Shown here piece after piece: positions 27,781-39,454 of a stretch of DNA of 43,912 nt; the stretch's first letter is position 1, and each line of letters starts with the position of its first letter. A program made the position numbers and the translations under genes. The stretch spans positions 1 to 43,912 of the forward strand of contig JACNGQ010000243.1 of NCBI GenBank assembly GCA_014384025.1, read 5' to 3'. A model generated the notes under the pieces. The model saw only the letters and a program-made list of their open reading frames with translations, ran no database searches and was not told the origin of the DNA. The DNA is from Planctomycetota bacterium. GTDB taxonomy: Bacteria > Planctomycetota > Phycisphaerae > Sedimentisphaerales > Anaerobacaceae.

Positions 27781-29313
27781 TCAGTACGTGAACATTTCTA
27801 CACGCTGCTGGAATTGTTCAAAGTCCAGTTCACCTATGGCGAAGGCATCCACATCCGTCTTTTTTGCACGGATAGTCAGGACCGTGGTTGAGGCAGAGCC
27901 TGTTTCTCCGTATTCCATACCGCCCATCATGCCGCCACCGAAACCCTGGCCTCCCATGCCCCCGCCGGCCATTCCACCCATGCCGCCGCCCATCATCACA
28001 CCGCCGCCGAAAGCCTGGCCTCCCATACCACCGCCTGCCATTCCACCCATACCAGCCATTCCACCCATACCGCCACCCATCATTACGCCGCCGCCGATAC
28101 TACCGCCCATTCCGCCACCCATAGCGGCCCCTCCACCGTAAGGGCTCCTTCCGCCCGAAGAGGATCGTCCCCTCGATCTGGAAGTTCCGGACCCTGGGGC
28201 GGCGCTTCGGTAGTAGTCTTCATACATCCCGCCGGCTTGCCGGCTTTGCCCGATGACCGTGAGGATTATCCATTCATCCGGTTGTAAGTTTCGAATGTTT
28301 GCGGAGTGTTTTAAGGTTCTGATAAGCTCTGTTTTTATCTGGTCAATCTGCTGCGCACTGTATTGTTCTTCTTGAGCAAAATCGCCGCCGCCGAAACCTT
28401 TTGGCGAGAATAATTGCTGTTTTGCACGCTGCCAGTCCGGGTCGATATATTCTTCAGTTTCCTGAGCTTCATGCTCCTGCGGTTCGGGTGGAGGTGAGAA
28501 TGTGAAATTTACTTCCATCAAAAAGAGCACTCCATAGCCCTGTATATAAATAGCTTCCGTTGAACGACTGTCCCGGCCAAAGATATCACCAAAATCGACG
28601 AATACTCCTTGAATCTCCTGCGGCTCCTTAAATCTTTCGTCGAATATATGGGACATAACCTGCAAATCCTCTGTTATTGCAACAAGGCTTTCGACTTCAA
28701 CGTCTGTAGCGGGGATAACGAGAACTTTCCGACCGACATTACGCCCGAATATAGGCGCAGGGCCGATCCTTTTCGGGCTATAGTTCTGATTAATCAGGTC
28801 TTTCATAACTCTACTGTATTGCAGGTCAAGTGGCTCAAAGGCGTAGCCCTCTTTCATAGGCGTAACCCTACCGTCCCAGCCATACTTAACGGCGGCGCGA
28901 TAAGTGCCGTCCCTGCCGGTAACAGGTTTGCCCGGCAGACCTTGCATTTCCACGCCGCTTAAGCCGGTTCTGCCGGAAATAATAAAGGTAATCATTTTCC
29001 ATACATAGTTCTGATTATCCCGATTGTTGGTAATATTTTTGTAGATCATACTGGCTGGTTCAATATTGTAACCTTCTTTTACGGGCCTAACCGTGCCGGT
29101 AAAGCTGTGCTCAACGGTGGCGCTGTAATAGCCCCTTTGGTCGGTAACAACATTGCCCGGCAGTCCTTGCATTTCCACGTCACTTAGGCCAACTGAACCG
29201 GAGATAGTATAAGTCGACAACTTTTCTTTGGGAGCTTTCTCAGCTAAGGCGAAACTTCCCATCACCAAACTAAAAATGACGAGCACAATAATTGTTCTGG
29301 TTAAAGATTTCAT
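27781..29313 (-). CDS. Secreted protein with two carboxypeptidase-regulatory-like repeats and a Gly/Met-rich region
   Basis: The protein has 510 residues. A signal peptide (about 1-24) is followed by two tandem 70-residue repeats (35-104 and 110-179) with 'SG..GLS.VEMQGLPG' at the start and 'G...P.KEGY..EP' later, the pattern of carboxypeptidase-regulatory or PEGA-like beta-sandwich repeats. A unique domain (about 185-375) then holds 'RKVLVIPATDVEVESLVAIT' and 'EDLQVMSHIFDERF'. A Gly/Met-rich low-complexity run (about 388-475, GGGMGG units) precedes a short end. AAAGGAA precedes the ATG. It is the first cargo gene after the sigma/TM pair, 83 bases downstream. The function is unknown; it is probably surface-exposed. 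Confidence 0.65.
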   Translation of the reverse strand: MKSLTRTIIVLVIFSLVMGSFALAEKAPKEKLSTYTISGSVGLSDVEMQGLPGNVVTDQRGYYSATVEHSFTGTVRPVKEGYNIEPASMIYKNITNNRDNQNYVWKMITFIISGRTGLSGVEMQGLPGKPVTGRDGTYRAAVKYGWDGRVTPMKEGYAFEPLDLQYSRVMKDLINQNYSPKRIGPAPIFGRNVGRKVLVIPATDVEVESLVAITEDLQVMSHIFDERFKEPQEIQGVFVDFGDIFGRDSRSTEAIYIQGYGVLFLMEVNFTFSPPPEPQEHEAQETEEYIDPDWQRAKQQLFSPKGFGGGDFAQEEQYSAQQIDQIKTELIRTLKHSANIRNLQPDEWIILTVIGQSRQAGGMYEDYYRSAAPGSGTSRSRGRSSSGGRSPYGGGAAMGGGMGGSIGGGVMMGGGMGGMAGMGGMAGGGMGGQAFGGGVMMGGGMGGMAGGGMGGQGFGGGMMGGMEYGETGSASTTVLTIRAKKTDVDAFAIGELDFEQFQQRVEMFTY

Positions 29314-29396
29314 TTTCTGTTCCTTTCATTAGCTTGTTACATTTTATAAACACATTTTGAACCAAGCCATCAGATACATTGAAGGTGGCGATTTGG

Positions 29397-30038
29397 TTAA
29401 TTCTCCTTAATGTCCAGCAGTTCGTTCTTTCGGGAAGCTATGGCCAGCAGGCTTTTTCCAAGCTGGGTTTGGTTGAATTCTATTTGCTTGAAGGCTGTTT
29501 CTATCCTTTCGCGGTCCTTTATTCGTGCAGCCTCGATTAACCGGGCGAGCTCTATTAGACGCTGGTTCGTCATAGTGCCGGATGCGGCTAAAGTCTGTGT
29601 GGCGAACTCCATAAGGTCGCGTCGAACCTGTTGCTGAAGCTCGTCTTTGAGCTGAGCGCAATTAGTCGCAAAAGCCGACTGCCAGCGCTCATTCATCTCC
29701 TCGGTCAGGTCCCTACGAAGAGCCGGTTCCAGAGACGTTCTCAGTGAGCTTTCCAGAGCGGCCCGAAGTTCTTCGACATCCAGCGGTTGCCCGGCGGAAA
29801 GCCTACCGCCGATGTATCCGAAACCAATCATCAATACCGCAGCGGCGGCGAACTTTATTATTGGATTCCTGAATATATTTCGCCATATTGTCGTGCCAGT
29901 ATATTGATGTACATTTGCTTTGTTTAACAGGGCGTCCCGGGTCCGCTGCACTGCACGGCCGGTGGACTCCGAACTCGGTTCAATCTGTGAGAGGATTTTG
30001 AGCCGATCGTGGATTTGGTTGTTATTGATTGATGACAT
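29397..30038 (-). CDS. One-TM protein partnered with ECF sigma (cassette 4), putative anti-sigma
   Basis: The protein has 213 residues. A cytoplasmic N-terminal part (1-50) leads into 'IWRNIFRNPIIKFAAAAVLM', which is both the entry and the membrane helix (about 60-78). An extracytoplasmic coiled coil of about 135 residues follows ('EELRAALESSLRTSLEPALR', 'QTQLGKSLLAIASRKNELLD'). The TM segment is very like those of the three other sigma-linked proteins in the window. No HxxxCxxC zinc anti-sigma motif is present. The gene overlaps the sigma gene by 17 bases. Membrane tethering of the sigma factor by its N-terminal part is inferred from this arrangement only. Confidence 0.6.
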   Translation of the reverse strand: MSSINNNQIHDRLKILSQIEPSSESTGRAVQRTRDALLNKANVHQYTGTTIWRNIFRNPIIKFAAAAVLMIGFGYIGGRLSAGQPLDVEELRAALESSLRTSLEPALRRDLTEEMNERWQSAFATNCAQLKDELQQQVRRDLMEFATQTLAASGTMTNQRLIELARLIEAARIKDRERIETAFKQIEFNQTQLGKSLLAIASRKNELLDIKEN

Positions 30039-30564
30039 TATGTGTTTCCTTTACAAAAGATTGTGACCGGTTGTGTTCAAGTATATGTCGAAGACGATTC
30101 GAGGCCCTTGAGCACAGGGCCCGGATGTGATGGGGGGTCTTACCCAATTGTTCGGCGATATAGTCGTAAGGTTCCTGTTGGATATATCGCATTACGAAGG
30201 CCTCGCGGGGCACTTTATTCAATTTAGCAACAGCGTTTAATATTTCATCCAGCTCTTCCGTTCGGATAAGTTTATTCAATGGCGAGCTGCCATTGGAAGC
30301 CGGTTCGGATATCTGGTCCAATCCCACACGATTCAGCTTACGGTTGCGTCGCCACTCGAAGGCCAGATTAATAGCTGTTTTGCGGGCATAAGCGTAACGG
30401 TTCCTGACCTTATCGAACCGGCTTGTATTATTGAGTTTTATAAATAATTCCTGCATTAATTCCTCGGCAACATCTTCGCGCAGTGTCAGCCTGGTCAAAA
30501 GCGCATATAGATTCGCTCCGGACTTGTCCAACAGCTCTAAAAGTTCTTTCTGTCGGTCTCGCAA
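30022..30564 (-). CDS. ECF-type RNA polymerase sigma factor (cassette 4)
   Basis: The protein has 180 residues, normal for ECF sigma factors, with region 2 (about 20-85, 'REDVAEELMQELFIKLNNTS', 'YAYARKTAINLAFEWRR') and region 4 (about 115-170, 'LNKVPREAFVMRYIQQEPYD', 'IAEQLGKTPHHIRALCSRAS'). There is no sigma regions 1 or 3. The start is TTG with AGGAGG immediately upstream; no ATG fits better. It heads the operon running to 19765 and is coupled to a TM protein by a 17-base overlap. It presumably directs transcription of this operon or related secreted-protein genes, but its promoter motif could not be identified. Confidence 0.85.
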   Translation of the reverse strand: MRDRQKELLELLDKSGANLYALLTRLTLREDVAEELMQELFIKLNNTSRFDKVRNRYAYARKTAINLAFEWRRNRKLNRVGLDQISEPASNGSSPLNKLIRTEELDEILNAVAKLNKVPREAFVMRYIQQEPYDYIAEQLGKTPHHIRALCSRASNRLRHILEHNRSQSFVKETHNVINQ

Positions 30565-30675
30565 AAAACCTCCTGATGTTTGCCTTTCAAGACTTCACTA
30601 TTATAGACGGTAAAGGGTGTCTGTGCGCAACCTCTTTTATGAATAAATTTTTCGTTTTTTATTATCTATGCGCAT

Positions 30676-30731: not shown

Positions 30732-31922
30732 CTATTTGACTTTAAATTCGTATTGGTAGGTTTCGTTCTTATCCAAATCTTTGCCCCGGCAGCGAAGAAT
30801 AAAACCGTCTGCGGTTTTCTCGTACCTGAAATCTTTTCCGCTGAATAAATCTTTCGGTAGACCTTCCGGAAGAGTTTCAGGCAATTGGCCGGTTTTGGCT
30901 TTTTGTATATATATCTCGATTGCCGCCCGTACGGCGTTGTTTAATGTTTTGTCCCTTGTCTCAACACTTATAATTCTATTAAAATCCGGTGAAATAATTG
31001 ATGTTAGATAAGCATCGGTGTTGTTTTCGGCAAGGTCCTTATGCGGCTGTTTGTTAAGCTTGTTAAGCTCGGTATAGACCTTCTCATAGTTCATCGGCGT
31101 ACTTAGAATCGTTTGAAGTGTATCCATATGCTTAATATAGTAAGCCCTGTTTTTATCAATAACGGTCTGGTCCACATTGCGAAGCTGTTCGGCTTCTTTG
31201 CTGCCAGGTTTAACAGGTTCACCGAGAACTATTTCTATGAGCTTCTTTAGTTTATCGAGCTGCATATGTTCGAGAGACAGCTCCCTTTCATATTTTGTTG
31301 TAGGTCTTGATGAAAGTGGCTTGCTTTCTATAATAGCAAGCTGGCTTTTCAACCACGTCAATGTCTTCAGGTCCTGCGGCGTCTCGGCCAGAAGATACTG
31401 GATGTGGTTATCCGCCACCTTGCTAAGTGACATAGCTACCAACATTGAAATTATTGTCTCGTCGCCCATATGCTTGCTCATCTTGTGAAGAGTCAGGCAG
31501 CGGTCAAGCGCCTTCTGGTAGTCGCCGTCGGCTGCGAGAATTCGGGTCTCGGCGCCTATAATGAAGGCCAGCTTTCTCGTCTGAGCAAGGTGAGACAACA
31601 ACATCTCAAATCCGTCGGAATATTTCAGACCCCAGTTGCAATTCGGAACCTCGGCCGCGGCAACGGCAAGATTAATCGCGCCTCGGCAGTTTTCGATGTA
31701 TTTTCTGATTCTTTCATTCGGTTCGATTTTGTCTCTTGATAAATCACTCACCATCTCCTGCATGGTATCGTCCGATTTTTCATAGGCAATGTATGCCTGA
31801 TAGTAAAGTAAAGCTGCATTATCAGGGTCTGGCGGATAAGCAAAAACAGGAGAAGTTAGTATAAGCAGCATCAAAGTAATGCACGTAGTTGTTGTTAATT
31901 TGTTGTTAGTAATCGTTTTCAT
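30732..31922 (-). CDS. Secreted 'YPPD' family protein, cassette 1
   Basis: The protein has 396 residues from the ATG at 31922 (AAAGGAAA upstream); a longer frame to 32033 runs back into the TM gene and has no ribosome site. A signal peptide ('CITLMLLILTSPVFA') is followed directly by 'YPPDPDNAALLYYQAYIAYE', the family hallmark. An all-helical body with 'NCNWGLKYSDG' comes next, and the C-terminal block 'LPKDLFSGKDFRYEKTADGF' and 'LRCRGKDLD' ends in 'YEFKVK'. It is about as similar to cassette 2 as to cassette 3 products. No known domain is recognised. It is the presumed cargo of the sigma/TM pair, starting 19 bases after the TM gene. Confidence 0.65.
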   Translation of the reverse strand: MKTITNNKLTTTTCITLMLLILTSPVFAYPPDPDNAALLYYQAYIAYEKSDDTMQEMVSDLSRDKIEPNERIRKYIENCRGAINLAVAAAEVPNCNWGLKYSDGFEMLLSHLAQTRKLAFIIGAETRILAADGDYQKALDRCLTLHKMSKHMGDETIISMLVAMSLSKVADNHIQYLLAETPQDLKTLTWLKSQLAIIESKPLSSRPTTKYERELSLEHMQLDKLKKLIEIVLGEPVKPGSKEAEQLRNVDQTVIDKNRAYYIKHMDTLQTILSTPMNYEKVYTELNKLNKQPHKDLAENNTDAYLTSIISPDFNRIISVETRDKTLNNAVRAAIEIYIQKAKTGQLPETLPEGLPKDLFSGKDFRYEKTADGFILRCRGKDLDKNETYQYEFKVK

Positions 31923-31941
31923 GGTTTTTTCCTTTCTGTAT

Positions 31942-32388
31942 TTAGCTTTGGGAACCGTTAAATAAATCTCCCAGTGATAAACTGGCCGGCTGCGGTCCCA
32001 GAATCTTAAGGGCCTTTTCACACTGATTTTCAATTCCTTCTATGCCGCCCCTGCGATAAGCGATTGTCAGCGACTTCATCGTCATTATCTCAGCCGGGGA
32101 CTCGACAGCTTCATAAACCATAGCAGTATCTTTTTGCTCACCCGGGCCCTGGTGAACATAGAAGCTGATACCTGCTATTATCACAGCCGCTGCGGCGGTA
32201 AGCTTAATCATTCTGCTTAGGGTAATTATCCGGGCCGTGCTCGGCTTGTGGTCCGCCGATTTAGCCCGCATAGTTTGCTCCATAGCTGCTAATGAATCAT
32301 CCAGGGTGCGCTTGTCCATTTCGCGGCTGGTTGTTACATCCGGCTTTCTGACTTTTACGAATTCTTCTATATTTTCTTTCGGTCTCAT
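31942..32388 (-). CDS. One-TM protein partnered with ECF sigma (cassette 1), putative anti-sigma
   Basis: The protein has 148 residues: a charged cytoplasmic N-terminal part (1-58), a membrane helix at about 61-78 ('IKLTAAAAVIIAGISFYV') and an extracytoplasmic tail. The tail carries a motif shared by cassettes 1-3: 'SPAEIMTMKSLTIAYRRGGI' then 'E.QC..A.K..G' and 'LFNGS' (about 96-146). The ATG overlaps the sigma stop (ATGA). No zinc anti-sigma motif is seen, so the anti-sigma role rests on gene order and topology. The conserved Cys near residue 123 could form a disulfide or bind a ligand outside the membrane. Confidence 0.6.
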   Translation of the reverse strand: MRPKENIEEFVKVRKPDVTTSREMDKRTLDDSLAAMEQTMRAKSADHKPSTARIITLSRMIKLTAAAAVIIAGISFYVHQGPGEQKDTAMVYEAVESPAEIMTMKSLTIAYRRGGIEGIENQCEKALKILGPQPASLSLGDLFNGSQS

Positions 32389-32960
32389 TTTGTCACCACA
32401 CTATTCAATATTGAACGAAGCTTGTCCAAACCGTATCTGTATCGGCTCTGGACAGTATTAATCGAAATATCAAGGGCCTTGGCTATTTCCCGAAATCGCA
32501 TCTCGTGATGCAGGTGCAGCACGATAATCTCACGCTGCTCGTATGGAAGCCGGGCCAGTAAATTCTGCAGCTCGCCGGATTCCTCGATGCCGATCGCGTT
32601 TTCAATCGGCCCGTCCGAATCGCAGCAGGCTGTTTCAACAACGTCCGGCCCTGCGAGCCGCGGCGACCTTAGGCGGTTCCTGTCACGGGCACTGTTGGCA
32701 ACACAGGTTGAAAGATAGCCTTTCAGGGTCCCGCTGAGATGGAAAGAACCCACAGTTCCCGAAAACGAAACAAATACGTCGTGCACAACGTCTTCGGCAA
32801 GGCTTCTGTCTCTTAACAGGGTGATAGCCAATCCCAGCAGGTCATCTTTGAACTTTTCATAGATCCGCCGCAGAGCATCTTTGCTTCCGCGATTAAATTT
32901 CCAAACAAGTATGTTGTCTTCAACCATCAAATTCACTTGTCCAATCAAAGAAACGGCCAT
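32385..32960 (-). CDS. ECF-type RNA polymerase sigma factor (cassette 1)
   Basis: The protein has 191 residues from the ATG at 32960; the paralogue in cassette 2 suggests the true start may be the ATG at 32927 (MVEDN against MLDDK). Region 2 has 'DRSLAEDVVHDVFVSFSGTV' and 'GYLSTCVANSARDRNR'; region 4 has 'LPYEQREIIVLHLHHEMRFR' and 'ALDISINTVQSRYRYGLDKL'. It is strongly related to cassette 2 sigma and less so to cassettes 3 and 4. A 68-base element repeated upstream of the 33101 gene lies directly before it. The sequence of the TM gene begins inside its stop codon. Confidence 0.85.
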   Translation of the reverse strand: MAVSLIGQVNLMVEDNILVWKFNRGSKDALRRIYEKFKDDLLGLAITLLRDRSLAEDVVHDVFVSFSGTVGSFHLSGTLKGYLSTCVANSARDRNRLRSPRLAGPDVVETACCDSDGPIENAIGIEESGELQNLLARLPYEQREIIVLHLHHEMRFREIAKALDISINTVQSRYRYGLDKLRSILNSVVTK

Positions 32961-33028
32961 TTCTTACCGGTATAACGAATAACCCATCCATTTTAGTCTA
33001 ATTTCCCAGAAATTTTGCAAAAAAAGCG
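32961..33028 (-). repeat. Shared 68-base upstream element, copy 1
   Basis: The 68 bases before the cassette 1 sigma gene match those at 33898-33965 at about 57 positions. On the minus strand both contain 'TTAGACTAAAAT', then 'GGGTTATTCGTT' and an ACCGGT palindrome. TAAAAT could be a -10 box with TTGCAA 19 bases upstream. It is probably a duplicated promoter or operator. Confidence 0.6.
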
Positions 33029-33031
33029 TAT

Positions 33032-33060
33032 AAAAAAAGCCGAGCTAAACATGCCCGGCC
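33032..33060 (-). terminator. Terminator downstream of the 33101 gene
   Basis: On the minus strand GCCGGGC-ATGTTTA-GCTCGGC (one G-T pair) is followed by a run of seven T, 40 bases behind the stop of the gene at 33101. Confidence 0.75.
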
Positions 33061-33100
33061 TGATTTCTGAGTGTTTTGTTATTTAATTCATTACTTCAAA

Positions 33101-33832
33101 TTACTTTGCCGCGTTTCTCATTTCGTCCATTTCTTTTTCAAGGTCGGATAAACGCCCCTTGACTGTCTGTACTTTGGAATGGTCTCCGAGTTGTGTATAT
33201 ACTCCGACCAATTCATTCAAAGCGTCCTTTTCAAATGAAATCCCAACCACACGCGTGATGTACATGCCATCTTTATTGTTAGTAAATTCTCTGCCTACTT
33301 CCCATGCGTATAAAAGACACGCCTCTGCTCTCGCATAATCTTTTTTGGTGATGCAGGACTGGGCTTCGGCAATCACATCCTTTACGAAACTGCGAGTCTT
33401 TTTAGCAATATCGACAACCTCGGCCATTGCTTTCTCCTGGTCCTCCGGTGACAATTGAAAATATTCACTCTCAGTTATTGTTTTCATGTACGGGCGATTG
33501 AAAATATCAAGACTTAAGCGTTTCTCTTGAAGGTTTTTATCCAGTAGCCCTAATTCTTTTTCCCAGAAGTCGATAATAAACTCTTCCATCATTTCATCCT
33601 GTTGCTCCTGAGATAGTTGCTTGAATTCATCTTTTGTGATGGAGGAATCGTCGGAGACGTTAGGTTCTAAAGCTCCGTCGTATTTTATCACCTGCTTGTC
33701 TGGTAAAACCTCCGCTTTCGATGGATCCGATTCTATAGCCGAGCTGTTCTTGTCCGCGGAATCGTTGAACAGAAGGAAAAGCCCCAAAGCCAATACTACA
33801 ATGCTTATCAATACTCCTGTTATCTTTTTCAT
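33101..33832 (-). CDS. Membrane-anchored helical protein of unknown function
   Basis: The protein has 243 residues from the ATG at 33832 (AGAGAGAA upstream); the longer frame to a GTG at 33904 lies inside the repeated upstream element and is less likely. 'MKKITGVLISIVVLALGLFL' forms a signal anchor. The rest is an acidic, helical extracytoplasmic domain with a Ser/Asp-rich linker ('FNDSADKNSSAIESD'), 'LSQEQQDEMMEEFIIDFWEK' and a TPR-like C-terminal part ('YARAEACLLYAWEVGREF'). It is not a sigma/TM/cargo gene itself, but shares the upstream element of cassette 1 sigma, which suggests common regulation. It has its own terminator. The family is not recognised. Confidence 0.6.
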   Translation of the reverse strand: MKKITGVLISIVVLALGLFLLFNDSADKNSSAIESDPSKAEVLPDKQVIKYDGALEPNVSDDSSITKDEFKQLSQEQQDEMMEEFIIDFWEKELGLLDKNLQEKRLSLDIFNRPYMKTITESEYFQLSPEDQEKAMAEVVDIAKKTRSFVKDVIAEAQSCITKKDYARAEACLLYAWEVGREFTNNKDGMYITRVVGISFEKDALNELVGVYTQLGDHSKVQTVKGRLSDLEKEMDEMRNAAK

Positions 33833-33897
33833 ATTTCTCTCTCTTGATTTCCGAATTGCATTGTCAATTTCCGGCCCAACGACAAAGTGTTGGCACT

Positions 33898-33965
33898 TTC
33901 TCACCGGTACAACGAATAACCCGTCAATTTTAGTCTAATTTTTCTGAAAAGTTACAAAAAAAGCC
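33898..33965 (-). repeat. Shared 68-base upstream element, copy 2
   Basis: This is the partner of the element at 32961-33028, with eleven differences. It lies upstream of the 33101 gene, overlaps the terminator of cassette 2 at its far end, and keeps the TAAAAT and ACCGGT boxes. Confidence 0.6.
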
Positions 33966-33987
33966 GGGCTTTCAAACCCGGCTTTTT
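33956..33987 (-). terminator. Terminator of sigma cassette 2
   Basis: AGCCGGG-TTTGAAA-GCCCGGCT is flanked by T runs on both strands, so it can stop transcription either way. It lies 20 bases behind the cassette 2 cargo gene. Confidence 0.8.
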
Positions 33988-34007
33988 CCACTGATGATAT
34001 TTTAAAG

Positions 34008-35207
34008 TTACTTTTTGACCTTGAATTCGAGCATCCGCCTCATACGTCCTTTTTGGAATTCCTCGCCCTGGCAGCGGAGGGCAAAGCCGTCGGCAGTTTT
34101 CTCGTACTTAAAATCCTTGCCGCTGAATAAATCTCCCGGCAGACCGTCAGGCAAGGTATCAGGCAGCTTGCCGCTCTTAGCCTTTATCATATAAATCTCA
34201 ACTGCTGTCCTGATGGAGTTGGAAATTGTTTTCGTCCTTATCTCAATACTATAAATTCTACCGAACGCAGGTGTCAGAAGAGAGGTCAGTGTTGCAGCAG
34301 GATTCTCGGTGATCTCTTTCCCCGGCCTTTCATTCAATTGCTCCAGCCGACTATAAACCTCGGCATAAGGTATCGAACTTTCCAGAACCTCATCGAGAGA
34401 ATTCATATGCTTTATATAATAATCCCTGTTTTTGGCGAAAAACACTTCATCACCTTCAGTAACTCGCTTAATGGCCATTTTCTCAAGGTCCCCAACTTCT
34501 TCTGGCCCGGAACACAAAGCAAGTAGTTTATCACGTCTATCAACTTGCATTTCTGAAGAAAAGCATTCTTTCTCAGAGCGCATCGCGAACCTCAGTGACG
34601 GTGTTTTGAACGGTACCTCTGCTAATTTCGCCTTGAGACATGTTAAGGTTTCCAGGTCCGGTTGCATGTCGGCAAGGATATCCTGAATGCGACTGGCAAC
34701 CATCTTGTCTATTGACATCGATACCAAAAAGGAAATGGGTGTATCATCGCCAACATGTTTGCCTATCTTATGAACTGTTAAACAGCGGTTAATAGCTTTC
34801 TGGTAATCGCCTTCGGCTGCCAGAATCCTAGCCTCTGCAGTAATAAGAAAGACCAGCTTTCTCGTCTGAGCAACATGGGCCAGGTTGATCGATACTCCAT
34901 CGGAATATTTCAAACCCCAATTACAATTTGGAATCTCGGTTGCGGCCGCTGCAAGGTCAATTGCTGCCCGGCAGCTTTCGATATATTTTTTGATTCTTTC
35001 ATTTGGTTCGATGTTGCCCCTTGATAAATCGGCAACCATATCCTCCATAGTGTCGTCAGCTTTTTCATAGGAAATGTAAGCCTGATAATACAGCAGGGCT
35101 GCATTATCAGGGTCCGGTGGATAGGCGAAGACCGGAGAACTTAGTATAAGTAGTGTCAGAATAAAGCTCGTAAACTTTGTTAATTTGTTGGTTGTAACTG
35201 TTTTCAT
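34008..35207 (-). CDS. Secreted 'YPPD' family protein, cassette 2
   Basis: The protein has 399 residues. A signal peptide ('FTSFILTLLILSSPVFA') precedes 'YPPDPDNAALLYYQAYISYE'. The helical body keeps 'NIEPNERIKKYIESCRAAID' and 'PNCNWGLKYSDG', and the C-terminal block 'LPGDLFSGKDFKYEKTADGF' and 'LRCQGEEFQKG' ends in 'LEFKVKK'. It is the closest relative of the cassette 1 product, especially in the first 200 residues. AAAGGACA precedes the ATG, 17 bases behind the TM gene. The body contains a helix-rich region with 'ARILAAEGDYQKAINRCLTV', which resembles a TPR. No enzyme motif is visible. Confidence 0.65.
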   Translation of the reverse strand: MKTVTTNKLTKFTSFILTLLILSSPVFAYPPDPDNAALLYYQAYISYEKADDTMEDMVADLSRGNIEPNERIKKYIESCRAAIDLAAAATEIPNCNWGLKYSDGVSINLAHVAQTRKLVFLITAEARILAAEGDYQKAINRCLTVHKIGKHVGDDTPISFLVSMSIDKMVASRIQDILADMQPDLETLTCLKAKLAEVPFKTPSLRFAMRSEKECFSSEMQVDRRDKLLALCSGPEEVGDLEKMAIKRVTEGDEVFFAKNRDYYIKHMNSLDEVLESSIPYAEVYSRLEQLNERPGKEITENPAATLTSLLTPAFGRIYSIEIRTKTISNSIRTAVEIYMIKAKSGKLPDTLPDGLPGDLFSGKDFKYEKTADGFALRCQGEEFQKGRMRRMLEFKVKK

Positions 35208-35224
35208 GATTTTGTCCTTTCAAT

Positions 35225-35665
35225 TTATGAACCATTAAATTCGCTAAGTAATTCCTGAGATGACAAGCCGTCAGTCCGTGTTCCTAACAATTTCAAAGCT
35301 TGCTCACATTGATTCTCTACGGCTTCTATTCCTCCTCTCCGAAATGCGCGTTCGAGTGATATCGACGTCATCATTTCAACCGGCGATTTTGTAACTTCTA
35401 CTATGTTGGGTTGCTCCTGTTTGCTCGGCTCCTGGTGAGTTATAAAAAAGCTTACCGCTAAGATTATCACGGCTGCTGCGGCAATATTGGGGAGCGGGCT
35501 TTTTAGAATTATTCTCCATATATTCGGACCAGTCGGAGCAAATTCTTTCGCTTTTGATTTCTCAAATGCCTGCAAAATATTGCTGAATACCTTTTTGTTG
35601 CGTTCCGAATCGATGACAATATCAACATTTTTGATACGCTTCTCTATGTCTTCTGTTGAGCTCAC
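35225..35665 (-). CDS. One-TM protein partnered with ECF sigma (cassette 2), putative anti-sigma
   Basis: The protein has 146 residues from a GTG at 35665 that overlaps the sigma TGA (GTGA) and has GAGGTG 7 bases upstream; the longer frame to 35713 lies inside the sigma gene. The cytoplasmic part (1-47) is followed by 'NIWRIILKSPLPNIAAAAVI', with the membrane helix at about 60-76. The extracytoplasmic motif reads 'SPVEMMTSISLERAFRRGGI', then 'EAVENQCEQALKLLG' and 'LLSEFNGS'. It is nearly identical in this motif to cassette 3. There are no zinc ligands of the classic anti-sigma fold. Confidence 0.6.
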   Translation of the reverse strand: MSSTEDIEKRIKNVDIVIDSERNKKVFSNILQAFEKSKAKEFAPTGPNIWRIILKSPLPNIAAAAVIILAVSFFITHQEPSKQEQPNIVEVTKSPVEMMTSISLERAFRRGGIEAVENQCEQALKLLGTRTDGLSSQELLSEFNGS

Positions 35666-36207
35666 TTTTGCACCTCGCTGTTCAGTAATAAACGCAGTCT
35701 GTCTAATCCGCATCGGTACCGACTTTGGGCAGTCTTGATTGATACCTCTTGCAGCACACCTATTTCTCTGAATTTCATCCTGCCATATAAATGTAAGGTT
35801 ATTGCTTCCCGCTGTTCATATGGTAGTTTAGATATTGCATCACTCATTTTTCTTAGCTCTTCACCGTTCATTAACCATTGGTCTGGTGTTTCTAAATTTG
35901 ATGTCACAGGCGCGTTCCCATTCCACCGGTTGGTCCGCCGCCGGTGTGTAGCTATGTTTCTGTTTCGTGCACGATTGGCTACGCAGGTTGCCAGGTACCC
36001 CTTAAGACTTCCGGTAAGCTGAAACTGTCCGGCGGATTGCGCGAAGTTAAAGAAAACGTCCTGCACAATGTCCTCTGCATCACCGATGTCATTTAAAAGA
36101 GCGGCCGCCAGCCTCAGCAAATCATCGCGGTACTTTTCGTAAATGCGTGACAAGGCATTTACACTTCCACGATTGAATTTCCATACTAATAATTTGTCAT
36201 CCAACAT
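35662..36207 (-). CDS. ECF-type RNA polymerase sigma factor (cassette 2)
   Basis: The protein has 181 residues from the ATG at 36207 (MLDDKLLVWKFNRGS, matching cassette 1); a TTG at 36231 would add 8 residues and is less likely. Region 2 has 'DIGDAEDIVQDVFFNFAQSA' and 'GYLATCVANRARNRN'; region 4 has 'LPYEQREAITLHLYGRMKFR' and 'EVSIKTAQSRYRCGLDRL'. The region between the domains is short and polar. It heads cassette 2; upstream lies about 100 bases of AT-rich DNA with no promoter I can name, then the terminator of cassette 3. Confidence 0.85.
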   Translation of the reverse strand: MLDDKLLVWKFNRGSVNALSRIYEKYRDDLLRLAAALLNDIGDAEDIVQDVFFNFAQSAGQFQLTGSLKGYLATCVANRARNRNIATHRRRTNRWNGNAPVTSNLETPDQWLMNGEELRKMSDAISKLPYEQREAITLHLYGRMKFREIGVLQEVSIKTAQSRYRCGLDRLRLLLNSEVQK

Positions 36208-36333
36208 CAGCCGGCCGCCTGCTAAAGACAAGACAATCGATTGTCATCTATACAACAATCGAGGTATGCATTTTACTCAAAGGAAAAACAGAATTTTGTA
36301 TAATTTTAGTAGCTTTGCAGCCTAAAGGGTATG

Positions 36334-36364
36334 AAAAAGGCCGGATTTTTAAGCCCGGCCTTTT
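36334..36364 (-). terminator. Terminator of sigma cassette 3
   Basis: On the minus strand GGCCGGG-CTTAAAAA-TCCGGCC is flanked by T runs on both strands, 25 bases behind the cassette 3 cargo gene. Confidence 0.75.
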
Positions 36365-36388
36365 GTTGCTGATTATATATGTAAACCA

Positions 36389-37558
36389 CTATTTGACTTT
36401 AAATTCGTAACTATATGTTTCATCCTTGTCTAAGTCTTTGCCATGGCAGCGAAGAGTAAAACCGTCTTTAGTTTTCTCGTACTTAAAATCCTTGCCGCTG
36501 AATAAATCTCCCGGCAGACCGGCAGGCAAAGCATTAGGCAGTTTGCCGGTCCTGGCCTTTATCATATAAATCTCAATAGCTGCCTTAAGGGCGTTAGAGT
36601 GAGTATTCAATCTTATTGATAAGCTGTAAATTCTCTGCCATGTGGGTCCAAAAACAGCAGTCAAGGTCGCATCGGTATTTTTATTGAATTCTTTAGTCAG
36701 TTCTTCGTCTAACTTCTTAAGCTTTGCATATCCTTGTGGATACGGCAGGTCGAAAGCCGCTTCAATGCCGTCCATATAGTTGTTCCAATAAGTGATGTTT
36801 TTAGCAAAGAATTGCTGGTTGGCCGTGCGAATCCTTTCAAGGATTTTCTTTTTGGTGGGACCATCGTCAAGGCCGGACTGTACTACATCGTTGATTTTTT
36901 CCGGGGACATAGATATTATCCCCGCTTCGCGTTTCCAGCGAAGCACCGGTTCTATGGAGAATGGTTGCTTGTCGAGTTCTGTGAGTTCACCTCTCAACCA
37001 GGTCAAAATCTCTGCCTCTTGTGGCATCTCCGATAGAAAGTGAGTGATACATTGATTATTTGCGCCATTTATAGCGATACCTACAAGGTAGCTTATGATT
37101 GGACGCTCGTTGAGATGTCGTGCCATCCTGTATATACTTATGCAGCGACCCAGGGCTTTTTTGTAATCGCCCCTGTCGGCCTGCGTTCTTGCTTCAGCAG
37201 CAAGCAGCGCGAATATATCTCTGGCCTTGTGATGAGGTGGCAGCAGTACTTCTGTGCCCTGGGAATAGTCCAATCCCCAGTCACAATGGTCTATCCGGGA
37301 GGCATCGAGAACCATATCTATGATTCTGCGATTCTTTTTCAGGCATTCCTCTATTTTCTCGTTTGATTTAATTTTACCCTTCCAGTAGTCCCACAGCATG
37401 TTACCAATGTTGTCCGGGGATTCATACAGCGTGAAAGCCTTGTAATAAAGCACTGCCGCATTGTCGGGCGGGTATGCACAGGCTGACGTTGCTGATACGA
37501 GTAGTACCAAAACAGCAAATGTCACCGTTCTTGTTTTTATGCTTTTGTTTGTTTTCAT
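36389..37558 (-). CDS. Secreted 'YPPD' family protein, cassette 3
   Basis: The protein has 389 residues. Its ATG overlaps the TM-gene TGA (ATGA). A signal peptide ('VTFAVLVLLVSATSACA') precedes 'YPPDNAAVLYYKAFTLYESP', a slightly shortened hallmark. The body diverges from cassettes 1 and 2 in the middle, but keeps 'HCDWGLDYSQGTEV' and 'ARTQADRGDYKKALGRCISI' (TPR-like). The C-terminal block 'LPGDLFSGKDFKYEKTKDGF' and 'LRCHGKDLDKDETY' ends in 'YEFKVK'. The strong conservation of both ends against a variable middle suggests a conserved export or anchoring function and a variable recognition part; this is inference. Confidence 0.65.
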   Translation of the reverse strand: MKTNKSIKTRTVTFAVLVLLVSATSACAYPPDNAAVLYYKAFTLYESPDNIGNMLWDYWKGKIKSNEKIEECLKKNRRIIDMVLDASRIDHCDWGLDYSQGTEVLLPPHHKARDIFALLAAEARTQADRGDYKKALGRCISIYRMARHLNERPIISYLVGIAINGANNQCITHFLSEMPQEAEILTWLRGELTELDKQPFSIEPVLRWKREAGIISMSPEKINDVVQSGLDDGPTKKKILERIRTANQQFFAKNITYWNNYMDGIEAAFDLPYPQGYAKLKKLDEELTKEFNKNTDATLTAVFGPTWQRIYSLSIRLNTHSNALKAAIEIYMIKARTGKLPNALPAGLPGDLFSGKDFKYEKTKDGFTLRCHGKDLDKDETYSYEFKVK

Positions 37559-38043
37559 GGTTTCGTCCTTTCTGAACTTCTACCATTACCGTTAAATTCT
37601 GCGAGTATCCACTCGATTGGTAAGCTTCCAGGCCGCGGTCCAATTGGCTTATAAGCCTGTTTGCATTGTTCTTCTACTGCTTCTATTCCTCCTCGCCGAA
37701 ATGCGCGTTCGAGCGATATCGCCGTCATCATTTCAACCGGACTTTTTGTAACTTCAGCAATCTTAGGCTGTTCCTGTTCGCCCGGCTCCTGGTGAGTAAT
37801 AAAAATGCTTACACCTAAGATTATCACAGCCGCTGCGGCAATTTTGGTTAGCGGGCTTTTTAGGATTACTTTCAATATTTTTGGCTGCTTGACCGAATCC
37901 CCTTTAGCTGCACGAGAAAGGAGTACTTGGTATTCTTCGGGGTATTTTTGCTTCCATTTCTCGGCGTCGAACTGTGGCTTTGCCGTGTTGATGGTGCGGG
38001 ATATTAGTTCATCTATCCGTTTTTCATTTCTTTGCTCGTTCAT
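37555..38043 (-). CDS. One-TM protein partnered with ECF sigma (cassette 3), putative anti-sigma
   Basis: The protein has 162 residues from the ATG at 38043 (GAGG 8 bases upstream, 2 bases after the sigma stop); a TTG two codons earlier is less likely. The cytoplasmic part (1-60) has 'FDAEKWKQKYPEEYQVLLSR'. The membrane helix is about 66-83 ('LTKIAAAAVIILGVSIFI'). The outside motif reads 'SPVEMMTAISLERAFRRGGI', then 'EAVEEQCKQAYKPIG' and 'ILAEFNG'. A 10-residue tail that contains no motif extends past the ends of its paralogues. Confidence 0.6.
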   Translation of the reverse strand: MNEQRNEKRIDELISRTINTAKPQFDAEKWKQKYPEEYQVLLSRAAKGDSVKQPKILKVILKSPLTKIAAAAVIILGVSIFITHQEPGEQEQPKIAEVTKSPVEMMTAISLERAFRRGGIEAVEEQCKQAYKPIGPRPGSLPIEWILAEFNGNGRSSERTKP

Positions 38044-38045
38044 AA

Positions 38046-38606
38046 TCAAACCTCACCAAAACCATTTCGCCCTAAGTAACCGGCCAATTTTTTCTTTACT
38101 CTTCGCAGCCTTCCGTTTATGGCCTGTTCAGAGATACCCAAAACCGCCGATATCTGCTCGTAAGACATACCGTCATAGAACCGCAGAAAAATCAGCTCTC
38201 TTGCAGAAGCCGGAAGTTTGCTTATGGCTTGCCTTACGACCTCAGTAGTCTCATCGTCCCTCGGTTCAGTTGCTGCTATCGAAAGTTCATCGGCACTTTG
38301 AAGGTTCTCTGTCCTTCGGGCAATATCTTTTGCGATGTTCCTGCAAATTACGGCAAGCCAGCCGGCAAATCGATTCTCTTTTTTTAACTGTGGCAGCTTC
38401 ACCGCGGCCTTTGCGAATGCCTGCTGAGCTGCGTCTTCAGCTAAGTGCCTGTCGCCAAGTACCGAATGTGCAATTGCAACCATAGCCGGATAATAACGAT
38501 GGCACAATTCCGTAAAGCCCTCTGCATCACCGTCGATAGCTGACCTGACTAATGTTGTATCCGGTTTTTGAGTCACTGACCTTTCTTTCTCCGGAGTCCC
38601 GGGCAT
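38046..38606 (-). CDS. ECF-type RNA polymerase sigma factor (cassette 3)
   Basis: The protein has 186 residues. It is a different ECF type from cassettes 1 and 2, closer to SigW/SigE-like factors: region 2 has 'GDRHLAEDAAQQAFAKAAVK' and 'RFAGWLAVICRNIAKDIARR'; region 4 has 'LPASARELIFLRFYDGMSYE' and 'AVLGISEQAINGRLRRVKKK'. That a different sigma heads the same TM/cargo pair implies that the sigma gene was exchanged or that the downstream pair was recruited. The ribosome site is weak. The upstream 120 bases, up to the terminator at 38726, hold no clear promoter. Confidence 0.85.
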   Translation of the reverse strand: MPGTPEKERSVTQKPDTTLVRSAIDGDAEGFTELCHRYYPAMVAIAHSVLGDRHLAEDAAQQAFAKAAVKLPQLKKENRFAGWLAVICRNIAKDIARRTENLQSADELSIAATEPRDDETTEVVRQAISKLPASARELIFLRFYDGMSYEQISAVLGISEQAINGRLRRVKKKLAGYLGRNGFGEV

Positions 38607-38725
38607 TATTTACTTTCGCTGACTCAGCTTCTATTAATTCAGACTCATTGTTGCACTCAAAATGGGCGCTGAAAATACTGCTTTAAAGTTTTTTTATTAT
38701 ATTGATTTTGAAGTGGTTGGCGCAT

Positions 38726-38838: not shown

Positions 38839-39243
38839 TTACTCAGTTGTGGTGCTTGCCACTGGGCAGCAACCCGTCTTGGCAGCAGTTGCATCGGATT
38901 TTGGGCAACAACCCGGTGCAGCCTCTCCAGCGCAACAAGGCTTGGTGCAATCTGCCGGGCAGTCCTTTGAACCTTCTTGAGCACAGCAAGGCTTGGTTGG
39001 ATCGAGCGGACAAGTCTTTTCGGCAGACCCACACTCGGCCTTTCGAGTACATTCTCCTTCAGCGCTGCTTGCAAAAACAGCCTGCGAAGCCGTACATGTC
39101 GCATTTTTTGTTGCCTGGCAGGTTTTGGGCTGCGAGCCGGTCGATAAAATATTCGTGTAATTACCCAGCAAAACCGTCCCTGCCAATACAGCGACTAAAA
39201 CAGCAGCGATAACAAGCAAATTTTTAGTGTTTTTCAGACTCAT
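38839..39243 (-). CDS. Membrane-anchored Cys-rich protein
   Basis: The protein has 134 residues from the ATG at 39243 (GAGGG upstream); the longer frame adds 5 residues without a site. The N-terminal signal or anchor segment 'LLVIAAVLVAVLAGTVLLGN' is followed by a low-complexity domain with 15 Cys, largely as 'KPCCA', 'GCCP', 'KDC' and 'CTKPCC' units spaced by Ala/Pro/Lys/Asp. That composition suggests metal binding or a heavily disulfide-bonded surface protein. No classical family is recognised. It is monocistronic with its own terminator. Confidence 0.6.
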   Translation of the reverse strand: MSLKNTKNLLVIAAVLVAVLAGTVLLGNYTNILSTGSQPKTCQATKNATCTASQAVFASSAEGECTRKAECGSAEKTCPLDPTKPCCAQEGSKDCPADCTKPCCAGEAAPGCCPKSDATAAKTGCCPVASTTTE

Positions 39244-39454
39244 TGGAACTACCCTCATTAAAAAATTAGCATTCAGTTTTCAAACTTTCTCGAAAACACA
39301 CATTCTCCAAGTGTTTATTATACCAGTTTTATAGAAGTAGTGTTCGGAAAAAAAAAGATGATTTTCATAAAAACCTTTGTGTCCCATAAAGTTTCAAATA
39401 TTGCTGAAATTGGCCATTCAACCGAATGCATTTTGTAAAACTCCCGTTATTGCA

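What the first reader, a model, noticed from the sequence alone, without database searches (positions are those of the whole stretch)
30732..38606. Tandem array of sigma / one-TM protein / secreted 'YPPD' protein cassettes
Three cassettes in 8 kb each hold an ECF sigma gene, a one-TM protein gene and a secreted protein of about 390 aa, with ATGA/GTGA overlaps or short gaps. TM and cargo products are clear paralogues, while the sigma factor of cassette 3 is of another ECF type. The TM proteins lack the classic HxxxCxxC anti-sigma motif. This looks like a duplicated signalling unit in which a membrane partner controls a sigma factor and a secreted cargo; the anti-sigma role is inferred from order and topology.
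Basis: partly seen in the sequence, partly recalled or inferred. Interest (0 to 1): 0.75.

Follow-up and report, generated by a model that had tools for sequence, protein, structure and literature searches.

The report
Sigma switches with swappable outer halves
In a group of uncultured planctomycete bacteria, small self-controlling gene switches (a sigma factor, its probable membrane-bound inhibitor and a secreted protein) have repeatedly exchanged their outer halves at the membrane-crossing part of the inhibitor, so that one kind of outer part is wired to several different switches.

Summary
Three minus-strand cassettes (ECF sigma, one-TM protein, secreted ~390-aa protein) lie at 30732-38606; a fourth, related sigma/TM unit follows at 27781-30564. 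The order recurs across one order of Planctomycetota (Phycisphaerae/Sedimentisphaerales MAGs).

The TM protein is most likely an anti-sigma factor, as proposed, but a two-headed one. Its cytoplasmic half comes in three non-zinc types, each tied to one sigma clade and, in most units, to a clade-specific promoter-like site. Its 53-aa outer half occurs 71 times in 159 genomes of the order: 69 times directly before the secreted gene, twice at contig ends. Outer half and secreted protein are paired with different sigma types; in the closest swap pairs DNA identity drops from 75-100% to about 50% at the TM helix.

Exact promoter patterns occur in this genome only before the cassettes and one extra secreted-protein gene (33101-33904), which suggests autoregulation and very narrow regulons.

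Not shown: sigma/TM binding, TM/cargo binding, the signal, the cargo's function (a helical family without Pfam or PDB relative). Verdict: new variant of a known kind; the exchange departs from a published rule for class I anti-sigma factors.

The parts
38641..38669 (-). type-B promoter-like site GCGCCCAT-N17-GTCT before sigma 3; only exact match in the genome
38046..38606 (-). cassette 3 ECF sigma, type B
   Evidence: Pfam r2/r4; B clade 24/24 at 99 support
37555..38049 (-). cassette 3 one-TM protein (putative anti-sigma): N-type B, TM helix, outer 53-aa motif
   Evidence: AF2 model
36389..37558 (-). cassette 3 secreted YPPD protein (cargo)
   Evidence: AF2 pLDDT 93.4
36232..36278 (-). type-A2 promoter-like site GAGTAAAAT..GTTGTATA followed by inverted repeat GACAATCGATTGTC, before sigma 2
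35662..36231 (-). cassette 2 ECF sigma, type A (subgroup A2)
35225..35665 (-). cassette 2 one-TM protein (putative anti-sigma), GTG start overlapping the sigma stop
34008..35207 (-). cassette 2 secreted YPPD protein
33908..33935 (-). second type-A1 promoter-like site, before ORF 33101-33904
33101..33904 (-). secreted-protein ORF (likely internal ATG, MKKITGVL...), predicted regulon member of sigma 1
   Evidence: homologue in G083 (L109) lies between two A1 sites in the same way
32971..32998 (-). type-A1 promoter-like site GACTAAA-N14-CGTTATA before sigma 1
32385..32960 (-). cassette 1 ECF sigma, type A (subgroup A1)
31942..32388 (-). cassette 1 one-TM protein (putative anti-sigma)
30732..31922 (-). 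cassette 1 secreted YPPD protein
30602..30629 (-). type-C promoter-like site TGCGC-N16-GTCTATA before the fourth sigma; only exact match in the genome
30022..30564 (-). fourth unit: ECF sigma, type C
   Evidence: Sigma70_r2 over cut-off; C clade 13/13 at 99 support
29397..30038 (-). fourth unit: one-TM protein, N-type C, longer outer half without the 53-aa motif
27781..29313 (-). fourth unit: secreted Gly-rich protein, not related to the YPPD cargo

Best explanation
Each cassette is a self-contained, autoregulated ECF sigma / membrane anti-sigma switch whose main output is its own operon, including one secreted helical protein. The TM protein is a two-headed anti-sigma factor: its cytoplasmic N-terminus holds the sigma (inferred), and its short outer domain reports on, or is controlled by, the secreted protein (inferred), in the manner of RpoE-RseA-RseB. 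The left unit (promoter, sigma, anti-sigma domain) and the right unit (outer domain, secreted protein) have been exchanged repeatedly at the TM-helix coding sequence (shown from sequence; recombination as the process is inferred), which is the main stretch of DNA that TM genes of different types still share. Release of sigma would switch on sigma, its inhibitor and the secreted protein together; the signal and the release mechanism are unknown.
For: Sigma clade predicts the N-type: B 24/24 and C 13/13 each one side of a branch at 99 support; 8 changes for all labels against 40.3 shuffled. On the cargo tree the same labels need 13 changes against 15.6 shuffled. Mantel r: N-sigma 0.66, outer half-cargo 0.46, sigma-cargo 0.035, the two halves of one gene 0.17; the same on 37 thinned cassettes. 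26 pairs with like sigma and unlike cargo, 9 the other way; in the closest pairs DNA identity is 75-100% up to the helix and about 50% after it; in the window TM2/TM3 go from 25-42% to 80-90% at that point. 74 of 102 shared exact words among own-genome TM genes centre on the TM code in both genes. Outer motif: 71 hits, 69 directly before cargo, 2 at contig ends. Clade-specific promoter-like sites, found in the own genome only at the cassettes. NF052375 anti-sigma hits in 6/51 cassette TMs and 4/12 long paralogues, two of which carry zf-HC2. Four N-terminal helices, TM, outer helices in the AF2 model.
Against: No binding data. Anti-sigma HMM hits on cassette TMs are weak (best 1.9e-4, far below cut-offs) and absent in the three window TMs. 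Neighbouring genes co-inherit anyway; within type A or B alone sigma and cargo do correlate (about 0.51), and in type B the outer half follows sigma (0.58) more than cargo (0.41). In the window TM2's outer half resembles TM3's while cargo 2 resembles cargo 1, so pairing is not strict. A cargo homologue in G084 stands alone behind a B-type site, and divergent cargo relatives without sigma exist, so the cargo can exist without the TM protein.
Confidence: 0.64

Rival explanations
1. The secreted protein is only an output (effector or envelope protein) of an anti-sigma-controlled sigma. It does not touch the TM protein, the outer domain senses something else, and outer domain and cargo occur together through linkage.
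For: Stand-alone cargo with a B-type site 7 nt before its ATG in G084; predicted regulons hardly larger than the cassette; divergent cargo relatives without sigma; within one sigma type the outer-half/cargo correlation does not stand out.
Against: Linkage alone does not explain why the break falls inside the TM gene at the helix rather than between the TM and cargo genes; the outer motif was never seen away from cargo where the contig allows the test.
Confidence: 0.4
2. The TM protein is not an anti-sigma factor but another membrane partner (adaptor or activator) translated together with the sigma.
For: Only weak anti-sigma HMM hits on cassette TMs, none on the three in the window; no Pfam family; model of low pTM.
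Against: N-type follows sigma clade; same TM stretch and position as zf-HC2 anti-sigma paralogues in the same genome; helix order as published for class I domains (PMC7406223); no other anti-sigma candidate next to these sigmas.
Confidence: 0.12
3. The apparent swaps are assembly artefacts: the TM-coding stretch is a repeat within each genome and assemblers of metagenomes joined different cassettes there.
For: All genomes are metagenome assemblies; TM genes of one genome share exact words of 12-34 bp at the TM code.
Against: Swapped combinations recur in several genera; some loci lie in single-contig chromosomes (G031, G032); the shared words (median 16 bp) are short for a misjoin.
Confidence: 0.08

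Closest known systems
RpoE-RseA-RseB of E. coli
   Same: Operon of ECF sigma, one-TM anti-sigma and a periplasmic protein; autoregulated promoter; the third protein binds the outer part of the anti-sigma (PMC8103513)
   Different: Third protein is a helical family with a small C-terminal beta part and no sequence relationship to RseB; exchange of halves is a new feature; binding here is only inferred and release proteases were not sought
Class I anti-sigma factors and their ASDI groups (PMC7406223)
   Same: N-terminal helical domain, TM, outer domain; co-inheritance with the cognate ECF sigma; zinc and non-zinc forms
   Different: Published: domains fused to ASDIs are well conserved within a group and differ between groups. 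Here one outer domain with its partner is shared by three N-types, and one N-type carries several kinds of outer domain
Other sigma/TM arrays of the same genome (contigs C204, C86, C205, C246)
   Same: Same sigma types, same TM stretch, tandem arrangement
   Different: Outer halves are mostly long and varied, without the 53-aa motif and without the YPPD protein

Membership tests
ECF sigma factors | sigma-70 regions 2 and 4 only, about 180-190 aa | tested here: met
   Pfam r2 and r4 above cut-off, 186-191 aa, TIGR02937 sigma70-ECF above cut-off
ECF sigma factors | autoregulated, clade-specific promoter in front of the sigma gene (common, not universal) | tested here: inconclusive
   conserved fixed-spacing sites upstream of the sigma genes; sequence evidence only, no transcription data
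Class I anti-sigma factors (ASDI) | N-terminal four-helix anti-sigma domain recognised by family models | tested here: inconclusive
   four N-terminal helices in a model of mean pLDDT 72, pTM 0.25; NF052375 hits below cut-off in 6/51 members; none in the window TMs
Class I anti-sigma factors (ASDI) | co-inheritance of the domain with the adjacent sigma | tested here: met
   tree labels and distance matrices
Class I anti-sigma factors (ASDI) | binds and inhibits its sigma | not testable with these tools
   needs two-hybrid or a reporter assay
RseB / MucB periplasmic regulators | sequence relationship of the third gene to MucB/RseB | tested here: not met
   no such Pfam match among 62 cargo homologues, none in the PDB profile search; predicted mostly helical
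RseB / MucB periplasmic regulators | binds the outer domain of the anti-sigma factor | not testable with these tools
   only co-occurrence was measured: 69 of 71, the other two at contig ends

The most novel reading that the evidence does not exclude
A natural plug-and-socket signalling system: the TM helix of a family of anti-sigma factors is a standing recombination joint, so that outer partner modules and promoter-sigma-inhibitor modules are recombined in tandem arrays, each combination giving a private autoregulated circuit for a secreted protein that itself gates the switch.
Probability: 0.4. Interest if true: 0.8.

Novelty: new variant of a known kind. Interest (0 to 1): 0.63.

Why it matters
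Planctomycetes carry very many ECF sigma factors (73 region-2 hits in this genome), and how such sets diversify is poorly known. These cassettes show a route: exchange at the membrane helix lets a sigma/inhibitor pair acquire a new outer partner in one step. They depart from the published pattern that each anti-sigma group keeps its own outer domain (PMC7406223), offer matched sigma/promoter/inhibitor sets whose specificity can be tested at once in E. coli, and define a secreted protein family with a confident predicted fold and no known relative.

Tried and rejected
Relatives of the cargo in Pfam, NCBIfam and by PDB profile: nothing beyond chance. Foldseek and VIA-align with the cargo model: best rows are designed helical repeats with Z under 10, within what helical models give by chance, so no fold is assigned. 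Structure search with the TM model: one meaningless row. Fused sigma-TM or TM-cargo proteins as evidence of contact: none by HMM; long apparent ORFs are upstream read-through. PDB profile search for the outer half of long TM paralogues: no match; its LolA/RseB-like nature rests on my own reading and one weak DUF2092 hit and is not claimed. Two planctomycete ECF papers (PMC7286433, PMC3497475) are not held, so their ECF groups could not be compared. One A2 pattern with a wrong spacer found nothing; the exact site was then located.
Full report
Where it is. The window is contig C426 of a 6.69-Mb genome in 448 contigs. Relatives of the secreted protein in named genomes are Planctomycetota MAGs, many labelled Phycisphaerae or Sedimentisphaerales, apart from one weak Acidobacteriaceae hit.

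What is there. Three cassettes on the minus strand, each sigma, one-TM protein, secreted protein, at 30732-38606, plus a fourth sigma/TM/secreted unit at 27781-30564 whose TM outer half and secreted protein are different. The sigmas are ECF. Sigmas 1 and 2 are 55% identical, sigma 3 is 24% identical to sigma 1; TM proteins are 36-42% identical to the first, secreted proteins 58 and 42%. An extra secreted-protein ORF, 33101-33904, lies between cassettes 2 and 1.

Distribution. The secreted family matched in 89 of 161 genomes of the order. In fetched loci 43 of 60 strong cargo homologues have TM and sigma upstream in order; divergent, longer cargo relatives lack sigma. The 53-aa outer motif of the TM protein (consensus KSPAEMxTxxSLxxAYRRGGxEAVExQ) was searched on its own: 71 hits in 54 of 159 genomes of the order, 69 immediately upstream of a cargo gene; the other two lie 286 and 172 bp from contig ends. 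In a draw of 392 genomes of the phylum only the window's own genome had it, so it is nearly confined to this order.

Two-headed TM protein. Apart from zinc-finger forms, the N-terminal halves fall into types A (MRPxxxIExxxK), B (WLDELISxTINTxKPxFDAEKWKQKYPEEF) and C (MSKIDENQIRxRLKxLSQIEP) (assigned by regular expression, three by eye). On a tree of 86 sigmas, B (24) and C (13) are each one side of a branch at 99 support; A is one clade of 37 plus three outliers caught by a loose expression. On the tree of the 42 cargo proteins of the same cassettes the labels are scattered: 13 changes against 15.6 for shuffled labels, 24 of 200 shuffles as low. Distance matrices agree: N-terminus with sigma 0.66, outer half with cargo 0.46, sigma with cargo 0.035, and the two halves of the same gene only 0.17; thinning to 37 cassettes changes little. 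Within type A or B alone sigma and cargo do correlate (about 0.51), so the scrambling is mainly between types, and in B the outer half is not closer to cargo than to sigma.

The joint. For pairs with like sigma and unlike cargo, DNA identity in the closest pairs stays about 75-100% from the sigma start to the TM-helix code and then falls to about 50% within one or two 60-base steps (for example L067 against L052: 97, 90, 95 ... 92, 90, then 60, 45). In more distant pairs identity is lower throughout and begins to fall within the N-terminal half. In the window TM2 and TM3 are 25-42% identical up to the helix and 80-90% after it; the cargo falls back to about 50% and its 3' end rises to 87-92%, while cargo 2 is closer to cargo 1 (75-83% in its first half), a mosaic of exchanges among neighbours. 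Among 21 TM genes of the own genome, 102 pairs share an exact word of 12 bases or more, and in 74 it is centred on the TM code of both genes (38 of 53 for pairs of different type), a stretch that makes up about 13% of the gene. L053 holds the clearest case: C-type site, sigma and N-terminus joined to an outer motif and cargo of the cassette-3 kind.

Promoters. Each type has its own site before the sigma gene: B, GCGCCCA-N18-GTCT with fixed spacing, in 18 of 24 units; C, TGCGC-N16-GTCTA, in 10 of 13; A1, GACTAAA-like with CGTT at fixed spacing, in 11 of 12, the remaining one being cut by its contig end; A2, a variant with GAGTAAAA and GTTATA. Exact patterns in the whole own genome: B one match, C one, A1 two, all in this window: three before sigmas 3, 4 and 1, the fourth before ORF 33101-33904. 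A homologue of that ORF lies between two A1 sites in G083, and G067 has the same pair of sites about 930 bases apart. Across 89 family genomes 24 of 61 B matches lie 864-915 bases before the outer motif, that is, before the sigma; the reversed control pattern gave about 34 matches by my count, so most of the remaining matches are chance. One further B match stands 7 nt before the ATG of a stand-alone cargo gene in G084. These are sequence predictions; no transcript was seen.

Anti-sigma role. The three window TMs match no curated family, but 6 of 51 cassette TMs and 4 of 12 longer TM paralogues match NF052375 anti-sigma, weakly in the cassette TMs; two of the long ones carry zf-HC2, with the same TM stretch in the same position. 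The model of TM3 has helices 3-22, 29-35, 37-50, 57-63, a TM helix 66-86, then outer helices (mean pLDDT 72, pTM 0.25), in line with the published four-helix layout of class I domains, about 44% of which lack the zinc motif (PMC7406223).

The secreted protein. It is predicted with confidence (pLDDT 93.4, pTM 0.87) as a stack of helices with a small C-terminal beta part. No Pfam family, no PDB relative by profile, no convincing structural match. One homologue (L072, same as L126) is fused to a domain that resembles the outer part of long TM paralogues (by eye).

Relation to the known. In order and topology it works like RpoE-RseA-RseB (PMC8103513), but the third protein is unrelated to RseB by sequence. 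PMC7406223 reports that domains fused to class I anti-sigma domains are well conserved within a group and differ between groups; these cassettes depart from that. I found no description of such exchange in the papers searched, which are open-licence papers only.

Shown: anatomy, recurrence, co-inheritance of halves, place of the joint, promoter-like sites. Inferred: sigma inhibition, autoregulation, secretion, contact of outer domain and cargo, recombination as the process. Unknown: signal, release mechanism, function of the secreted protein.

Noticed in passing
window 36232-36278; window 32950-32998 and other A-type units: Just downstream of the -10-like element of A-type sigma promoters lies a short inverted repeat whose sequence varies but keeps pairing (GACAATCGATTGTC, AAGAAACGGCCGTTTCTT, AAAATGGTCATTTT); stems of 5 or more with a 4-base loop in 5 of 29 against 0.4 expected. 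Either a 5'-end RNA hairpin or an operator.
   Followed up: partly
L040, L041, L042, L043 (own-genome contigs C204, C86, C205, C246): Further tandem arrays of 3-5 sigma/one-TM units with long, varied outer domains, some with zf-HC2 in place of the A/B/C N-terminus.
   Followed up: partly
L072:4306-6021 (same as L126:4001-5713): A cargo homologue fused at its C-terminus to a domain resembling the outer domain of long TM anti-sigma paralogues, with no sigma gene directly next to it.
   Followed up: no
L046:4629-6008, L085:4378-7504, L081:4052-6948: Divergent cargo relatives (about 430-460 aa), tandem in two genomes, in what looks like a shared neighbourhood without sigma genes; may show the older role of the family.
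   Followed up: no
L172 (G067:C205:201-228): An A1 promoter-like site before a 468-aa secreted or membrane-anchored protein with a coiled-coil-like start, a possible unlinked regulon member.
   Followed up: partly
window 38839-39258, minus strand: Small secreted Cys-rich protein (139 aa, several CC motifs) just upstream of the array.
   Followed up: no
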